Assembly (NCBI RefSeq): GCF_021555175.1
Contig: NZ_JAKGRW010000027.1
Span: forward strand, 1 to 64,000
Direction: 5' to 3'
DNA: 64,000 bases
From: Nocardioides alcanivorans
GTDB lineage: Bacteria; Actinomycetota; Actinomycetes; Propionibacteriales; Nocardioidaceae
Program-made: the position numbers and the translations under genes
Shown: piece after piece, positions 13,413 through 37,911 of the stretch
How positions within the stretch are numbered: position 1 is the first letter of the stretch
Layout of the letters: each line of letters starts with the position of its first letter
Notes under the pieces: model-generated
Databases searched by the model: none
The model's input: only the letters and a program-made list of their open reading frames with translations
Told to the model about the DNA's origin: nothing

Positions 13413-14485
13413 ATGTCGCTTGAGTCACGCATGCGGTGGCGCGGATATGTGCGAGGGCTGCGACGGCTGATCACCGACGAGGGCTCCATCCTGGTGCTGC
13501 TGACGATCTTCACCGTCGTGCTGGCGGTGATCTCCGTCGGTTTCCCGGGCTCCTTCCCGCTCACGTCCGTGCTGATCCCGCTGACCATCGGCAGTGTGCT
13601 CCTCGGGCCCCGTCGCCTGCCGTGGTTCGTGATCATCGTGCTCGGGGTGCTGGTGCTGGCGATGACCCGGCAGCCGACCATCACCCCACGCATCGCCTCG
13701 GGCATCGTGGTGATCTTCGTGGTCGGACTGATCATCATGGTGACGTCGTTCCGGCGCACCGAGCTCGGCGTCGGCGGCATGCGCGGCGAGTCGATGCTCG
13801 TCGACCTGCGTGACCGGATCCTGCACCAGGCGCGTCTGCCGGCGCTGCCGGAAGGCTGGTACGTCGAGTCCGCGTTGCGGTCCGCGAGCGACACTCCGTT
13901 CGCCGGCGACCTGGTCCTCGCCGCCCGCCGGGGCCGAATGATCGACCTCGTGGTGGCCGACGTCTCGGGCAAGGGGAGGGAGTCGGCACCAAGTCGCTGC
14001 TGTTGTCGGGCGCCTTCGCCGGACTGCTCAGTGAGATTCCGTCCGCCGAGTTCCTCCCGGCGGCCAACCGCTACCTGATCCGGCAGGAGTGGATGGAGGG
14101 ATTCGCCACGTGCGTGCACCTGACCGTCGACCTGGACTCCGGCGACTTCGAGCTGCGCAGCGCGGGCCATCCGCCGGCGATCCAGCTCCAGGCCCTCTCC
14201 GGTGAGAGCTGCGCCCATCAGCCGGAGGGGCCGTTGCTCGGCCTGATCGACGAGGCGGAGTTCGAGGTGGCACGTGGCAGCCTGGCTCCGGGTGACGCCG
14301 TCGTCATCTACACCGACGGCATGGTCGAGTCCCCGGGTCGCGACCTGGCCCAGGGCATCGACCGGCTCATCGATGGGGCGCACAGGATCCTCGGGGAGGG
14401 CCACCAGTACGGCGCCCAGCGCCTCGTCGACGAACTCGGTTCACCCGACGACGACCGCGCCCTCGTGCTCGTGCACCGCACCTGA
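13413..14485 (+). CDS. Membrane-anchored PP2C-type (SpoIIE/RsbU-like) serine phosphatase
   Basis: The start at 13413 has a strong ribosome site (ggaggagctgg). The first ~125 residues contain three or four membrane segments (ILVLLTIFTVVLAVISV, WFVIIVLGVLVLAM, GIVVIFVVGLIIMV). The remainder is a PP2C phosphatase with metal-binding DLVLAARRGRMIDLVVADVSGKG and VVIYTDGMVE. About 357 residues after restoring a base in the G run at 13973-13980. Such proteins dephosphorylate anti-sigma-factor antagonists. No partner kinase or antagonist gene is visible nearby, so the signalling role is inferred from the family. Confidence 0.87.
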
Positions 14486-14530
14486 CCCGCGAGGTCGCGG
14501 AACTTGTCACGCGAGGTCGCAGTGGTTGCG
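14485..14530. repeat. Short tandem repeat after a stop codon (gcgaggtcgc type)
   Basis: Two copies of about 22 nt, each beginning with cgcgaggtcgc, follow directly on the phosphatase stop codon. A related repeat built on gaggtcgc follows the stop of the MetE-like gene at 54699. The role is unknown. Confidence 0.55.
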
Positions 14531-14652
14531 CGCCGAAGTGGGGAAGTTGCGAGGAATCGCGCGAGCCGGGTGCCCACCATGGGCCGGCGGGGGTGAATTG
14601 GGAGGGCTCGGCGCCATGTGGCACGATTGCTCCGCACGTGGAACACGTGTGC

Positions 14653-33106: not shown

Positions 33107-35140
33107 GTGACCACGACCGGTCCCGACCTGCGACTCCAGCCTGAGCCGGAGTCGGTCTTTCCCCGTCTCGAGCCCCGGCTCGCCTCGGTGCAGAAGCCGA
33201 TCCAGTACGTCGGTGGCGAGCTCAACTCGACCCACAAGGAGTGGAACTGCGGGGCGGAGACCGAGGAGGGTGTCACCGTCCGCTGGGCGCTGATGTATCC
33301 CGACGCCTACGAGGTCGGCCTGCCCAACCAGGGCGTGCAGATCCTCTACGAAGTGCTCAACGAGCGTGACTGGCTCATCGCCGAGCGCACCTACTCGGTC
33401 TGGCCCGACCTCGAGCAGGTGATGCGGACCGGCGACGAGCAGGGGCCGATCCCGCAGTTCACCGTCGATGGGCATCGCCCGGTGGGCTCCTTCGACCTCT
33501 TCGGCATCAGCTTCTCGACCGAGCTGGGCTACACCAACATGCTCAACGCCATCGACCTCGCCGGGATCCCGTTGCACGCGGTCGACCGCGGTGAGGGCGA
33601 CCCGATCGTGATCGCCGGCGGTCACGCCTCCTTCAACCCGGAGCCCATCGCCGACTTCATCGACGCGGCCGTGCCCGGTGACGGCGAGGAGGTCGTGCTG
33701 AAGATCTCCGAGGTGGTGCGCGAGTGGAAGCAGCACTGCGCCGACAACGGTGGTGCCTTCGACAGCGGTCGTACGCCGCGCGACGAGCTGCTCTTCCGGC
33801 TGGCCGCCACGGGCGGTGTCTATGTGCCGAAGTTCTACGACGTCTCCTACGACGACACCTCCGGCGAGATCGCCGCAGTCGTCCCCAACCTTCCGGGCGT
33901 GCCGGCCCGGATCCGCAAGCACACCCTCATGGACCTCGACGCCTGGCCCTACCCGGCCAAGCCCTTGGTGCCGCTCGCCGAGACGGTGCATGAACGCTTC
34001 TCCGTCGAGATCTTCCGTGGCTGCACCCGTGGCTGCCGCTTCTGCCAGGCCGGCATGATCACCCGGCCGGTGCGCGAGCGCTCCATCACCACCATCGGTG
34101 ACATGGTGGAGAACGGCATCCGCAAGTCCGGCTTCGAGGAGGTCGGCCTGCTGTCACTCTCCAGCGCCGACCACACCGAGATCGCCGAGGTGGCCGAGGG
34201 ACTGGCCGACCGCTACGAGGGGTCCAACGTCTCGTTGTCGCTGCCCTCGACGCGGGTCGACGCGTTCAACATCTCGCTCGCCAACGAGTTCTCCCGCAAC
34301 GGCCGTCGCTCGGGGTTGACCTTCGCGCCCGAGGGTGGCTCGGAGCGCCTGCGCAAGGTCATCAACAAGATGGTCACCGAGGAAGACCTCATCCGGACCG
34401 TCGCGGCGGCGTACTCCCACGGCTGGCGGCAGGTGAAGCTCTACTTCATGTGTGGCCTGCCGACCGAGACCGACGAAGACGTGCTCGGCATCGCCGACCT
34501 GGCGAAGAAGGTCATCGCCAAGGGACGTGAGGTGTCGGGCCGCAACGACATCCGTTGCACCGTCTCCATCGGTGGTTTCGTGCCGAAGTCGCACACCCCG
34601 TTCCAGTGGGCGGCGCAACTCGACCCCGAGACCACCGACGAGCGGCTGCGCCAGCTGCGCGACGAGGTGCGCAACGACAAGCGCTACGGCCGCGCCATCG
34701 GCTTCCGATACCACGATGGCAAGCCGGGCCTGATCGAAGGACTGCTGTCGCGTGGTGACCGCCGCGTCGGCCGCATCATCGAGGAGGTCTGGCGCGACGG
34801 CGGCCGGTTCGACGGCTGGAGCGAGCACTTCAGCTTCGACCGGTGGAGCGAGGCCAGTGAGCGCGGGCTCGAAGGCACCGGTGTCGACCTGCTGTGGTTC
34901 ACCACCCGCGAGCGTGGCTACGACGAGGTGCTGCCCTGGGACCACCTCGACTCGGGTCTCGACAAGGACTGGCTGTGGGGCGACTGGGAGGACGCCCTGG
35001 CGGCGGCCGACGGCGAGGACATCGAGATCGAGGACTGCCGCTGGACGCCCTGCTACGACTGTGGCGTGTGCCCCGAGATGTCCACCGAGATCCAGATCGG
35101 CCCCACGGGCCAGAAGCTACTGCCGCTGTCAGTCGTCTGA
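33107..35140 (+). CDS. B12-binding-type radical SAM protein, TIGR03960 family
   Basis: 677 residues. The radical SAM cluster motif CTRGCRFC (Cys at about residues 306, 310, 313) follows a cobalamin-binding-like N-terminal domain, and YDCGVCPE at the C-terminus holds further cysteines. The family is found next to TIGR03936 (DUF2344) genes and is linked to tRNA or rRNA modification only by context. The last ~20 codons appear twice in the window: here, and again at 36568-36633 with synonymous changes. The copy attached here uses cta and tca, unusual for this genome, and so probably arrived with the island. The product is unchanged. Confidence 0.92.
   Translation: MTTTGPDLRLQPEPESVFPRLEPRLASVQKPIQYVGGELNSTHKEWNCGAETEEGVTVRWALMYPDAYEVGLPNQGVQILYEVLNERDWLIAERTYSVWPDLEQVMRTGDEQGPIPQFTVDGHRPVGSFDLFGISFSTELGYTNMLNAIDLAGIPLHAVDRGEGDPIVIAGGHASFNPEPIADFIDAAVPGDGEEVVLKISEVVREWKQHCADNGGAFDSGRTPRDELLFRLAATGGVYVPKFYDVSYDDTSGEIAAVVPNLPGVPARIRKHTLMDLDAWPYPAKPLVPLAETVHERFSVEIFRGCTRGCRFCQAGMITRPVRERSITTIGDMVENGIRKSGFEEVGLLSLSSADHTEIAEVAEGLADRYEGSNVSLSLPSTRVDAFNISLANEFSRNGRRSGLTFAPEGGSERLRKVINKMVTEEDLIRTVAAAYSHGWRQVKLYFMCGLPTETDEDVLGIADLAKKVIAKGREVSGRNDIRCTVSIGGFVPKSHTPFQWAAQLDPETTDERLRQLRDEVRNDKRYGRAIGFRYHDGKPGLIEGLLSRGDRRVGRIIEEVWRDGGRFDGWSEHFSFDRWSEASERGLEGTGVDLLWFTTRERGYDEVLPWDHLDSGLDKDWLWGDWEDALAAADGEDIEIEDCRWTPCYDCGVCPEMSTEIQIGPTGQKLLPLSVV
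35074..35109 (+). repeat. Left copy of 36-bp direct repeat (attL-like)
   Basis: Identical over 36 bp to 36568-36603. It lies in the 3' end of the radical SAM gene. The next 31 bp to the stop codon encode the same residues (QKLLPLSVV) in both copies, with several synonymous differences. This pattern is expected when an integrative element targets a gene end and supplies a replacement end. Confidence 0.85.
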
Positions 35141-35536
35141 CCTGGGCAAACGCGGTCCTGCAGTCGGGCTGTGTAACTGAGAGTTAGAAACATCGTCTTT
35201 CGCTTCCGGAGTCGCGATGCACCAGACTCGATGCGTGATGACAGTGGGTGCCCCGGTTGAATGGCGATTGACAGGCCGTATCGAGTCCTAAAACGGCATC
35301 CAGAGCCGGCGGGTATCGAGTCGCTGCTAGGGGGCGGTTGCCCGCCGCTGTCGTCGACGCCTATAACCGGGATACGGGGCTCTCCTTCAGAGAGACCTCA
35401 GGGCGAAGGAGCCAGGCGACGGTCACCATGGAGCAGATTGAAGACCTTAAGAAACGCCGCTCAACGGTTTCGGAGATCAGCTGCGAGATCGTGATCGTCA
35501 CGGAGTGCGGAGAGGTTCCTTCGACCCCTCCTTGCT
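35141..35536. other. Left part of the island, no supported gene
   Basis: Between the new radical SAM stop and the end of the TIR gene I see two overlapping short frames (35261-35494 and 35338-35580), neither with a ribosome site or family match. The stretch TVTMEQIEDLKKRR in the second recalls the start of a helix-turn-helix of small recombinases, but too little is left to call it. Confidence 0.5.
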
Positions 35537-36490
35537 TCATGTGCCTGGCCGGAACTCCGGGGTACAGGTTTCCGGAATGAAGTAGCGGAAAGTGATGCGC
35601 GGTTCGCCAGTTAGAGACGTCTCGCGGACTTCGATTTCGTCCACGAAGACGGCTGCCCAGTAGCCGTTGACGTTGCTCACGACTGCTGCGTCCCCGGTCT
35701 TGATGACGCGCGCCCTACTGGAGCCGTCGTACTGAGATGCGTCTCCTATGTGGGAGGGCTCGGTCGCGTCTCTTGCTAGTGCGACTGTCCTAATGTCGGC
35801 CGGGTCGTGATAGATCACTACGCTATCGGGTCCGCTGACGCTAAACGCGAGGGTGAAGGATCGGTCGCCCGCGCCAATCACATACTGCCCGTCGTCGTTG
35901 CTGTGGTCGAACTGCACGGTGCCACTCAGTCCTGGCGAGACGTAACGACCTTTGCTCCAGCTTACTGCTGATCGGACTTCGCTATCGGGGTGAAGTAGGA
36001 AGGGATTCCTGCCAAGCGGTGGCTTAGGTGTTGCTTCCATGCCGTGTAGGTCCTGGAGGAGTTCGAAGTACGCATCCTCGTACCTTTCAGGCGCCCGCAT
36101 ATCGACGTACTTCGCAGCCCCGAGAAAGCGCGGCAAGGCGGCGAAAGGATTGCTTCGCAGCACAGGGATGATGCGGTGTCCAGCCAGATTGGCCATGAGA
36201 GTTGGAGTGATCACTCTCCTCTCGTAACCGACGCCGCCCTCAGCGTTGTCCGCCTTCGATGTGTACGTGTCCGAAGCGATGGCGACCACGCGGAACTCGA
36301 TGTCGGCGGACTGCTCCATAAATAGGCTCAGATCGGAGCCGAGCGAGGTATCCCAACGATCGAGGACAACATCGACGCCATCATGACGAAGCCGGGTCGC
36401 CAGTTGCAGCACCCAATCCATATGCTCCGCGTTGTCCCAGGAGTAGGAGATGAAAGCCTTTGGCGGAATAGAGGGCGCGACGGTGGACAT
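35537..36490 (-). CDS. TIR-domain protein with uncharacterised C-terminal domain
   Basis: 317 residues if started at ATG 36490 (MSTVAPSIPPKAF); ATG 36517 is an alternative and neither has a good ribosome site. Residues ~10-135 are a bacterial TIR domain: KAFISYSWDNAEH at strand A, LRHDGVDVVLDRWD, FRVVAIASDTYTSKAD, and GGVGYERRVI, whose Glu sits where NAD-cleaving TIR enzymes keep theirs. From ~175 on is a separate beta-rich domain (SKGRYVSPGLSGTVQFDHSN, YWAAVFVDEIEV) I cannot name. Many bacterial TIR proteins are phage-defence NADases; this one has no partner gene on the island, so it would act alone or sense through its C-terminus. Codon use is less GC-rich than the flanking genes, consistent with transfer. 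Confidence 0.8.
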   Translation of the reverse strand: MSTVAPSIPPKAFISYSWDNAEHMDWVLQLATRLRHDGVDVVLDRWDTSLGSDLSLFMEQSADIEFRVVAIASDTYTSKADNAEGGVGYERRVITPTLMANLAGHRIIPVLRSNPFAALPRFLGAAKYVDMRAPERYEDAYFELLQDLHGMEATPKPPLGRNPFLLHPDSEVRSAVSWSKGRYVSPGLSGTVQFDHSNDDGQYVIGAGDRSFTLAFSVSGPDSVVIYHDPADIRTVALARDATEPSHIGDASQYDGSSRARVIKTGDAAVVSNVNGYWAAVFVDEIEVRETSLTGEPRITFRYFIPETCTPEFRPGT

Positions 36491-36567
36491 GTCGTGAGTG
36501 TCCCAGAAGACTGACATGGCTGGGAGGCGGGCTGCGGTCGTGGATATCTTTAACGTCCCATCTGCCA

Positions 36568-36603
36568 CGAGATGTCCACCGAGATCCAGATCGGCCCCAC
36601 GGG
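36568..36603 (+). repeat. Right copy of 36-bp direct repeat (attR-like), with orphan gene end to 36633
   Basis: Same 36 bp as 35074-35109. It is followed by codons for QKLLPLSVV and a TGA at 36631-36633, the apparent original end of the radical SAM gene, with the host's codon preferences (ttg, ccc, gtg). Confidence 0.85.
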
Positions 36604-36704
36604 TCAGAAGTTGCTGCCCCTGTCCGTGGTGTGACGACTGACTACGGTCGCCACGCTGACCAAAGCGGTTCATGTGAACCCCTTGGGTGGTGGGCACGGT
36701 CAAT

Positions 36705-36746
36705 CCGCTGACCGAAGGGGTTCATGTGAACCCCTTTGGTCAGCGG
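36705..36746. terminator. Bidirectional terminator after the radical SAM gene's original end
   Basis: A 42-nt near-perfect palindrome, arms ccgctgaccgaaggggttca and the facing tgaacccctttggtcagcgg. A related but imperfect copy (cgctgaccaaagcggttcatg) lies just before it at about 36654. It separates convergent genes. Confidence 0.8.
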
Positions 36747-36750
36747 GGTC

Positions 36751-37911
36751 CTACGCCGGCTCGCGCAGCTCGTCCTCGACGTACCGGGGCCGGGCAGCCT
36801 GGAGACCCACGAACAGTTGCGGGACGGTGAGGGCGAGCAGGAACCAGAGTGGGATCGTCCAACCGCCCGTGGCGTCGTAGAGCACGCCGACGGTGAACGG
36901 GCCGATCGCCGCGATGATGTAGCCGACCGACTGGGTGAAGCCGGAGAGCGCCGCGGTGCCGGCGGGTGTGCGGGTCCGCAGGCCGATCATGACCAGCACC
37001 AGGGGGAAGCTGCAGGCCCCGACACCGATGAGCAAGGCCCACAGGACGGCCAGGTCGTGCGGCGCGAGCATGAGGCCGATGTAGCCGACTGGATAGCACG
37101 ACAGCACGGCCATCAGGATGCCCCGCTGATCGGCACGTCGCGCGGCAGCAGCCGGGATCCACAGCGACAGCGGGATGCTCACGGCGGCGACGATGCCCAC
37201 GAGGTTGCCGGCGGTGGCGGGCGAGTAGCCGGCGTCACGCCAGAGTTGCGCGAACCAGCCGAAGACGGCGTAGGCCTGGATCGATTGCAGGCCGAAGAAG
37301 ACCGCCATCATCCAGCCGAGTCGGGTCCGCGCGACGTCTCCCAAGGAGATCTCGCTCTTCTTCCGCTCGACCTGCTTGTCGTGGACGATCAGCGAGAGCC
37401 ACGGCAGGGCGGAGACGGCCGCGACCACTGCCCAGACGCCCAGGCCGACGCGCCAGCTGTCGAACGCCTCGCTGATCGGGACCGTCAGCATGAGCGCTGC
37501 GGTGAGGCCGATCGCCAACGACGTGGTGTAGGCCGCGGTCATGATGCCGATGCGGGTCGGGAAGTGCAGCTTGATCAGCGACGGGAGCAGCACGTTGGTG
37601 GCCGCCATGCCGGCCAGCGCCAGCATCGTCAGGAGCAGGAACAGGGCAGGGGAGTGCACCAGAGCTCGTCCGGCCAGCCCGGCCACCACGCCCAGCAGGC
37701 CGATCAGCGTCACCCGGTGGACTCCCACCTTGGTGGCAGCCCAGGGGGAGAGGGCACCGAAGCCGGCGAACGCGACGACCGGCAACGAGGTGAGCACACC
37801 CGCCACGGTGTGCGACATCCCCAGCCCGTCGGTGACCTCGGCGAGCACCGGGCCCACGCTGACGGCAGCGGGGCGGAGATTGACCGCGACGGTCAAGATG
37901 CCGATGAGCAC
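36751..37911 (-). CDS. MFS transporter, CynX/NimT type
   Basis: 386 residues with about twelve membrane segments. It matches the cyanate/nitroimidazole-transporter-like MFS group (ILTVAVNLRPAAVSVGPVL at the start, GLQSIQAYAVFGWFAQLW in helix 7, GFTQSVGYIIAAIGPF in helix 10). The GTG at 37911 leaves no residues before helix 1. Restoring one C in the run facing 37923-37928 would extend it to a GTG at 37958 (SVSRPRSSFSPQRLLVLIG), which I think is the true start. Substrate unknown. An inverted repeat (gggagac..gtctccc) at 37946-37976 overlaps the promoter region. Confidence 0.83.
   Translation of the reverse strand: MLIGILTVAVNLRPAAVSVGPVLAEVTDGLGMSHTVAGVLTSLPVVAFAGFGALSPWAATKVGVHRVTLIGLLGVVAGLAGRALVHSPALFLLLTMLALAGMAATNVLLPSLIKLHFPTRIGIMTAAYTTSLAIGLTAALMLTVPISEAFDSWRVGLGVWAVVAAVSALPWLSLIVHDKQVERKKSEISLGDVARTRLGWMMAVFFGLQSIQAYAVFGWFAQLWRDAGYSPATAGNLVGIVAAVSIPLSLWIPAAAARRADQRGILMAVLSCYPVGYIGLMLAPHDLAVLWALLIGVGACSFPLVLVMIGLRTRTPAGTAALSGFTQSVGYIIAAIGPFTVGVLYDATGGWTIPLWFLLALTVPQLFVGLQAARPRYVEDELREPA

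What the first reader, a model, noticed from the sequence alone, without database searches (positions are those of the whole stretch)
35074..36633. TIR-domain gene on a small island that integrated into a radical SAM gene and rebuilt its 3' end
The last ~67 bp of the TIGR03960 gene occur twice, flanking a lower-GC segment. The first 36 bp are identical. The rest encode the same residues with synonymous changes. The copy now joined to the gene uses codons rare in this genome, and the orphan copy uses host-like codons. This is how an integrative element looks after targeting a gene end and supplying a replacement. The cargo is a single TIR protein, a fold common in phage defence. Elements that use this protein-coding gene as attachment site would be a new integration hotspot.
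Basis: partly seen in the sequence, partly recalled or inferred. Interest (0 to 1): 0.85.

Follow-up and report, generated by a model that had tools for sequence, protein, structure and literature searches.

The report
Integrase-free gene cassettes at one gene
In soil bacteria of the genus Nocardioides, small one- or two-gene DNA inserts sit repeatedly at the end of the same enzyme gene without damaging it and without carrying an integrase gene; the insert found here carries an antiviral-type SEFIR gene.

Summary
The end of the TIGR03960 radical SAM gene is duplicated (73 nt, 89%), flanking 1.4 kb of lower-GC DNA whose one clear gene is a SEFIR/TIR protein (PADLOC bSEFIR, E 1.7e-63). It is not unique. 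Seven other Nocardioides genomes have the same layout with other cargo (NUDIX, OLD-like ATPase, histidine phosphatase, HxlR/F420 oxidoreductase, unnamed small proteins). Four more carry decayed second copies: 12 of 161 genus genomes examined. Empty sites are seen in relatives for five of seven independent intact inserts. No insert shows an integrase or directionality factor. The hotspot is not new: phage phiJoe and SCO2603-type serine-integrase elements use this gene in Streptomyces (PMC5311408). A Streptomyces element found here joins at the same proline codon, and six of ten Nocardioides right ends resemble the phiJoe attP half-site. New is a minimal, integrase-free, gene-repairing form: the left end is a restored gene end, not the expected hybrid site. 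How these inserts move is unproven. Best guess: a phiJoe-type serine integrase in trans acting on a hybrid P-B' site; rivals are a tyrosine recombinase, homologous recombination or decay. Which copy is original is unresolved for the window.

The parts
33107..35140 (+). TIGR03960 B12-binding radical SAM gene, complete; target of the insertion
   Evidence: NCBIfam TIGR03960 647 bits; Pfam Radical_SAM_N2 and Radical_SAM
35072..35073 (+). Inferred crossover dinucleotide CC (first two bases of the Pro codon in C-P-E-M)
   Evidence: Same CC is the junction of the SCO2603-like element in Streptomyces G595; centre of the phiJoe attP palindrome
35075..35100 (+). B' block, joined copy (GAGATGTCCACCGAGATCCAGATCGG)
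   Evidence: Identical in both copies in 8 of 8 intact inserts; 1 and 4 differences in G307 and G254
35101..35140 (+). Gene tail of the joined copy; inferred to have come with the insert
   Evidence: 7 synonymous differences from the orphan tail; origin unresolved
35141..36541 (.). Low-GC insert with the cargo
   Evidence: GC 0.595 for 35141-36566; best match of phiJoe Int, gp52 or the G595 RDF-like protein in the window insert E 0.78
35537..36490 (-). SEFIR/TIR protein, bSEFIR type (start ATG at 36490, alternatively 36517)
   Evidence: PADLOC bSEFIR 1.7e-63; Pfam TIR_2 1.3e-16, SEFIR 3.4e-13; start chosen by eye
36542..36565 (+). P half-site at the right end (GGATATCTTTAACGTCCCATCTGC)
   Evidence: 13 of 24 identical to the phiJoe P half-site; 0.15% of windows in the insert do as well, the best of them 14; CCATCTG shared with 5 other right ends
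36569..36634 (+). Orphan copy of the gene end (B' block and tail with stop)
36751..37911 (-). CynX/NimT-like MFS gene (340 bits, under that model's cut-off of 406); in N. ungokensis (L086) the matching stretch starts right after the gene's stop, marking the empty site

Best explanation
The insert is one of a recurrent set of integrase-free, mostly one- or two-gene cassettes that occupy the phiJoe/SCO2603-type attachment site near the 3' end of TIGR03960 in Nocardioides. Shown: duplicated gene end, different cargo in different species, empty sites in relatives, a half-site shared by several inserts just before the orphan copy, no detectable integrase or directionality factor inside, and a complete gene on the left. 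Inferred: the mobile form is a circle whose attachment site joins a P half-site to a gene-like half-site (P-CC-B'), followed by a gene tail and the cargo. A serine integrase of the phiJoe type supplied in trans recombines it with the chromosomal B-CC-B' at the proline codon. The circle's tail then completes the gene and the host's own tail is left as the orphan copy. With B-B' on the left and P-B' on the right, the insert lacks the attL needed for normal excision, so it should be stable.
For: Eight genomes with the layout among 341 family genomes, four more decayed copies among 140 further flanks. Empty sites: L080 for G298; L283 for G214 (gene 95.5%, flank 90.9% identical), L086 for the window (gene 84.6%, flank 72.5%), L231 for G285 (87.8%, 78.6%), L177 for G240 (89.5%, 69.3%). 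CCATCTG lies within 12 nt of the junction in 6 of 10 independent right ends, TCTGCGAA within 40 nt in 4 of 10 (G203, whose junction is deleted, not counted). phiJoe attP has CCATCT-6 nt-AGATGG around its annotated central dinucleotide; win, G214, G285 and G298 have CCATCT-6 nt-AGATG. Identity to the 24-nt phiJoe P half-site is 16 (G285), 14 (G298), 13 (win, G214), 12 (G240, G290). Streptomyces G595 carries a 2.37-kb element with an integrase 68% identical to phiJoe Int at the same gene, joined at the same CC. The pattern TCTGCGAA-N4/5-CCATCTG occurs in 4 of 164 genus genomes: three times at this site, once inside an unrelated gene.
Against: The left end is B-B', not the attL (B-P') that a serine integrase makes; in Streptomyces G595 it is B-P'. 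In PMC5311408 recombination of attP with attLsc or attRsc was undetectable in vitro, though plasmids did enter both sites at low frequency in vivo. Best phiJoe Int hit in 209 genus genomes is 32% identical; none lies beside the gene where I had the gene's position, but for a number of genomes with hits I had none (by eye). PF07508 has no match in G000 (92% complete) or G240. G215, G235 and G307 right ends match phiJoe's half-site no better than background in register, G254 scores 9 untested; and within the inserts the best chance windows score 14-15, so only G285 exceeds every window of its own insert. The window's orphan junction reads CA where CC is expected. Perfect identity of the B' block (8 of 8; random pairs 0.19), including the window's TCC codon found in 0 of 140 relatives, is not predicted by a two-base crossover. 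G240 and G290 share an almost identical insert but differ at six positions of the joined tail.
Confidence: 0.45

Rival explanations
1. A tyrosine recombinase (ICE or phage type, now elsewhere or lost) uses the gene end as attB. Its attP carries the gene end as in tRNA-targeting islands, which explains the repaired gene and the long identity; CCATCT and AGATGG are its core arms.
For: Gene repair and long repeats starting at the junction are the usual tyrosine-recombinase picture (recalled). All 10 hosts searched have PF00589 recombinases.
Against: The strongest two hits in each host look like XerC/XerD by score, and I saw no other one in all hosts (by eye). None lies near the site on the same contig: nearest about 71 kb (G235), 124 kb (G285), 126 kb (G214), 227 kb (G215, G298); in G000, G240, G290, G307 and G254 there is none on the site's contig, but those contigs are of limited length. 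The crossover point and half-site resemble a serine-integrase family known to use this very gene.
Confidence: 0.2
2. Homologous recombination of a circle or fragment through the 26-36 bp B' block, or through the gene, with gene conversion making the block identical. The cassette ends derive from the attR of a former serine-integrase element.
For: Block identity in 8 of 8 with diverged tails (product of chances 0.0016 for win, G214, G215, G285); TCC in both window copies but in 0 of 140 relatives; the almost identical G240/G290 insert inside flanks about 95-97% identical.
Against: The same half-site motifs sit at the end of inserts with unrelated cargo, which suggests a retained functional site; the shared homology is short.
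Confidence: 0.15
3. Remnants: complete serine-integrase elements that lost integrase and directionality factor by deletion, with later repair of the gene end by recombination with relatives' genes. No cassette class exists.
For: Decay is visible: G254, G307, G181, G203; L290 keeps cargo without an orphan copy.
Against: 12 inserts searched: no integrase fragment (best E 0.19 for phiJoe Int). Two inserts look young: G235 and G298 have identical copies.
Confidence: 0.15

Closest known systems
phiJoe prophage and SCO2603-type serine-integrase elements of Streptomyces (Fogg et al. 2017, PMC5311408)
   Same: Same target gene (SCO2606-like B12-binding radical SAM); joined at the same Pro codon as G595; similar P half-site in part of the inserts; variable cargo reported; replacement gene tail present in phiJoe and G595
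   Different: No integrase or directionality factor found; left end is a native-like gene end instead of a P' half-site; insert of about 0.04-2.4 kb; Nocardioides
CIMEs (cis-mobilizable elements with att sites but no integrase; description recalled, name seen in search listing)
   Same: No integrase; flanked by att-like sites; assumed dependence on recombinase in trans
   Different: CIMEs are flanked by attL and attR of an ICE (recalled); here the left flank is attB-like
Integron gene cassettes (recalled)
   Same: Single genes of many kinds, no own recombinase, one chromosomal insertion place
   Different: No integron integrase or attC was searched for; no array seen, one insert per genome in these data
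bSEFIR single-gene defence (PADLOC PDLC03957)
   Same: Cargo residues 7-227 match positions 38-241 of the 412-position model
   Different: The rest of the model is not covered; function in this host untested

Membership tests
phiJoe/SCO2603 serine-integrase element | Inserts in the 3' end of the SCO2606-like (TIGR03960) gene | tested here: met
   PMC5311408 section 6
phiJoe/SCO2603 serine-integrase element | Crossover at the CC of the Pro codon | tested here: inconclusive
   G595 reference joins there. In Nocardioides the identity between copies starts near there, but the crossover cannot be located inside identical sequence, and the window's orphan junction reads CA
phiJoe/SCO2603 serine-integrase element | P half-site on one side | tested here: inconclusive
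   12 to 16 of 24 in 6 of 10 right ends (G240 and G290 counted apart); 3 of 10 at background in register and G254 (9 of 24) untested; only G285 exceeds all chance windows. Shared motifs among right ends support a common site
phiJoe/SCO2603 serine-integrase element | P' half-site on the other side (attL) | tested here: not met
   Left junction is B-B' in all 10 rows
phiJoe/SCO2603 serine-integrase element | Encodes serine integrase and RDF | tested here: not met
   tblastn of phiJoe Int, gp52 and the G595 RDF-like protein against 12 inserts: best E 0.047 (17 residues of gp52 in G298), nothing significant
CIME | Flanked by functional attL and attR, mobilised by a related ICE | not testable with these tools
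   No excision data; left flank is not attL-like
bSEFIR defence protein | Matches the PADLOC bSEFIR profile | tested here: met
   E 1.7e-63, residues 7-227 on positions 38-241 of 412
bSEFIR defence protein | Protects against phage | not testable with these tools
   needs a bench assay

The most novel reading that the evidence does not exclude
A single-locus cassette system: minimal circles with a hybrid P-B' site and a spare gene end, driven by a serine integrase in trans, deliver single genes into one conserved gene and repair it as they enter, leaving inserts that ordinary excision cannot remove. This would be a functional analogue of integron cassettes built on serine-integrase half-sites.
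Probability: 0.25. Interest if true: 0.8.

Novelty: new variant of a known kind. Interest (0 to 1): 0.6.

Why it matters
It shows how single genes, including likely defence genes, can be exchanged at a protein-coding gene without an integrase in the insert and without visible damage to the gene. If hybrid P-B' sites are substrates, the usual rule (recalled) that serine integrases act only on attP x attB, or on attL x attR with an RDF, needs an exception, and such sites would be useful for stable integration tools. It also shows that phiJoe and one related element bring a replacement C-terminus, which may explain why this gene tolerates so many insertions; a term search of the phiJoe paper's main text returned no statement of that.

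Tried and rejected
Core in phages, plasmids, viral contigs: blastn of the 73-nt end against 50,697 phage records gave one weak hit in an Aeromonas phage; against 72,556 plasmid records five hits, of which H3 is a chromosome-sized record with its own gene, H2 an orphan fragment, and H4-H6 weak and not followed up; a 35-nt degenerate pattern in viral contigs gave 0.

Other same-genome double hits: G053, G245, G270, G274 lie on different contigs and look like gene duplicates, contig overlaps or mixed genomes by eye; dropped from the count.

Wider taxa: the order scan (293 genomes, 74 matched) used a pattern with E-M that no genome outside the family matched, so it says nothing there. The class scan (394 genomes, 116 matched) gave two hits on one contig only in G000; G603 had two on different contigs. 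The exact pattern misses real elements: the orphan end of G595 was found only by protein, so restriction to Nocardioides is not shown.

Integrase at the site: PF00589 and PF07508 in 10 hosts (G181 and G203 not searched) and phiJoe Int in 209 genus genomes: none seen beside the gene, with the limits told above.

Half-site elsewhere as a pointer to the recombinase: one extra hit, G119, inside a transporter-like gene; taken as chance.

Empty sites: none clean for G235, G215, G307 or G254; the window's nearest relative L182 (gene 88.9%) does not share the flank, so its empty site rests on L086 and more distant genomes.

The statistics were computed after the motifs were seen, so their tiny P values are only a guide. 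'BrnT-like' for the 108-residue protein, in my notes, was my reading by eye; it has no Pfam or NCBIfam hit and I do not claim it.

Papers: PMC5311408 section 6 in full plus passages; PMC12924846 and PMC7261884 passages (the last irrelevant); all others only as search listings. Searches for print on integrase-less inserts at this gene or in Nocardioides; none seen in those listings.

Full report
What is there. The radical SAM gene 33107-35140 (TIGR03960) ends normally. After it come 1.4 kb of DNA at 59.5% GC, against 68.4 +/- 2.1% elsewhere in the window, and then a second copy of the gene's last 66 nt at 36569-36634. The first 36 nt of the repeat are identical, the remaining seven differences are silent. 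The only clear gene between them is a SEFIR/TIR protein of about 317 residues on the minus strand that matches half of PADLOC's bSEFIR model.

It recurs. A degenerate gene-end pattern over 341 Nocardioidaceae genomes matched 243; 12 had two matches, 8 of them (G000, G214, G215, G235, G240, G285, G290, G298) on one contig and strand, 0.76-2.45 kb apart. I fetched 140 further genus flanks and 13 more from genomes without a pattern match; a few are cut short by contig ends. A profile of the core found two more, diverged, second copies among the 140 (G307, G254). A profile of the tail found these two and two more whose block is deleted (G181, G203). That makes 12 of 161 genus genomes examined (8 + 140 + 13; the 13 were scanned with the core profile only). 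The other 54 of 215 genus genomes were seen only by the exact pattern. In another set of 80 loci only L101, the same genome as G290, has a second copy.

Cargo differs. NUDIX plus a 108-residue protein (G214); a 569-residue AAA/OLD-like ATPase (G215); histidine phosphatase and a 124-residue protein (G298); relatives of the 108-residue protein alone (G235) or with a 131-residue protein (G240, G290); HxlR regulator and F420-type oxidoreductase (G285); a 150-residue protein with a sub-cut-off match to an Rv0910-family model (G181). Defence is therefore only part of the cargo. Related cargo sits at the same place in L243 (G203) and L290 (G312), the latter with no orphan copy left, so the same genes have been there in several species.

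Empty sites. In N. turkmenicus L080 the gene end runs straight into the flank that follows the orphan copy in G298. L283 does nearly the same for G214 (54 nt extra), L231 for G285, L177 for G240 (69% identity only), and L086 for the window: there the MFS stretch begins at the stop codon, while the window has 108 nt of its own before it. For G215 and G235 I found no clean one, and the window's nearest relative (L182) has another flank.

The junction. Directly left of the orphan block several inserts share sequence: CCATCTG in 6 of 10 independent right ends and TCTGCGAA in 4 of 10 (motifs chosen after inspection, G203 not counted because its junction is deleted). phiJoe's annotated attP has the CCATCT-6 nt-AGATGG palindrome around its central dinucleotide. 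Identity to its 24-nt P half-site is 16 in G285, 14 in G298, 13 in the window and G214, 12 in G240 and G290; G215, G235 and G307 show 5-6 in register, no better than background, and G254 9, untested. Chance windows inside the inserts reach 14-15, so taken singly only G285 stands above all of them. G215, G235 and G307 look shifted by one base, by eye.

A reference element. Streptomyces G595 has a second gene-end copy and between the copies a 2.37-kb element whose integrase is 68% identical to phiJoe Int, the value reported for SCO2603 (PMC5311408). Its left junction is gene-CC-P' and its right junction P-CC-gene end, with CC the first two bases of the proline codon. So the Nocardioides inserts lie at the attachment site of a known family. 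Fogg et al. wrote that many elements use it and that cargo varies; PMC12924846 (passages) says phiJoe, phiOZJ and phiWTR share one attB, in a radical SAM gene. The hotspot is thus not new.

What is different. In 12 Nocardioides inserts no integrase or directionality factor was detectable, and the left junction is a normal gene end (10 of 10 rows) where P' is expected. phiJoe and G595 also bring a replacement tail (GGKMLPLTV..., GKKLLPLTV...), but with a visibly altered P' stretch; in Nocardioides the repair is exact. The simplest reading is a circle with a P-B' site. Against it stand the undetectable activity of attP on hybrid sites in vitro, the lack of a close phiJoe-like integrase in the 209 genus genomes searched, and the unexplained perfect identity of the 26-nt block in 8 of 8, including the window's TCC codon seen in 0 of 140 relatives. 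The last point favours a step with homologous recombination or gene conversion.

Which tail is original. G285 points to the orphan copy (mean difference to 10 nearest relatives 10.6 joined, 6.5 orphan). G214 is undecided: its nearest relative gives 7 against 3, the mean of ten 6.1 against 6.1. The window (6.8 against 8.9), G215 (6.2 against 7.9), G307 and G254 point to the joined copy; G298 and G235 are identical; G240 and G290 have no orphan tail to compare. G240 and G290 share an almost identical insert within flanks about 95-97% identical, yet their joined tails differ at six positions.

Verdict. A real, recurrent, integrase-free and gene-repairing variant at a known serine-integrase insertion site, carrying a probable defence gene in this genome; mechanism open.

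Noticed in passing
L295 (phiJoe, around 14302-14606) and L407 (Streptomyces G595, 764-1040 in gene orientation): phiJoe and the G595 element encode a replacement C-terminus for the radical SAM protein, and its stop codon overlaps the start (GTGA) of the directionality-factor gene (gp52, and a 62-aa relative in G595), so after integration the factor would lie directly behind the host gene.
   Followed up: partly
window 36481-36496: Inverted 15/16 copy of the core (CACGACATGTCCACCG on the minus strand) over the start of the SEFIR gene, including the rare TCC.
   Followed up: no
window 36644-36748: Palindromic repeats of about 40 nt between the orphan gene end and the MFS gene, possibly terminators or an operator.
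   Followed up: no
L083 and L080, directly after the radical SAM stop: N. luteus has a NUDIX-like gene and N. turkmenicus a GNAT-like gene (both named by eye) between gene end and a RidA-like gene, without orphan copy; perhaps older cassettes.
   Followed up: partly
L073 8001-8056 (Streptomyces sp. NBC_00984 plasmid): Unannotated orphan fragment of the radical SAM gene end on an 846-kb plasmid.
   Followed up: no
G245 C4:45129 and C8:270555: Two gene ends with identical flanks on two contigs; duplication or assembly artefact.
   Followed up: no
L276 (G254): Only 41 nt lie between the gene stop and the decayed second copy's junction: an almost empty insert.
   Followed up: no
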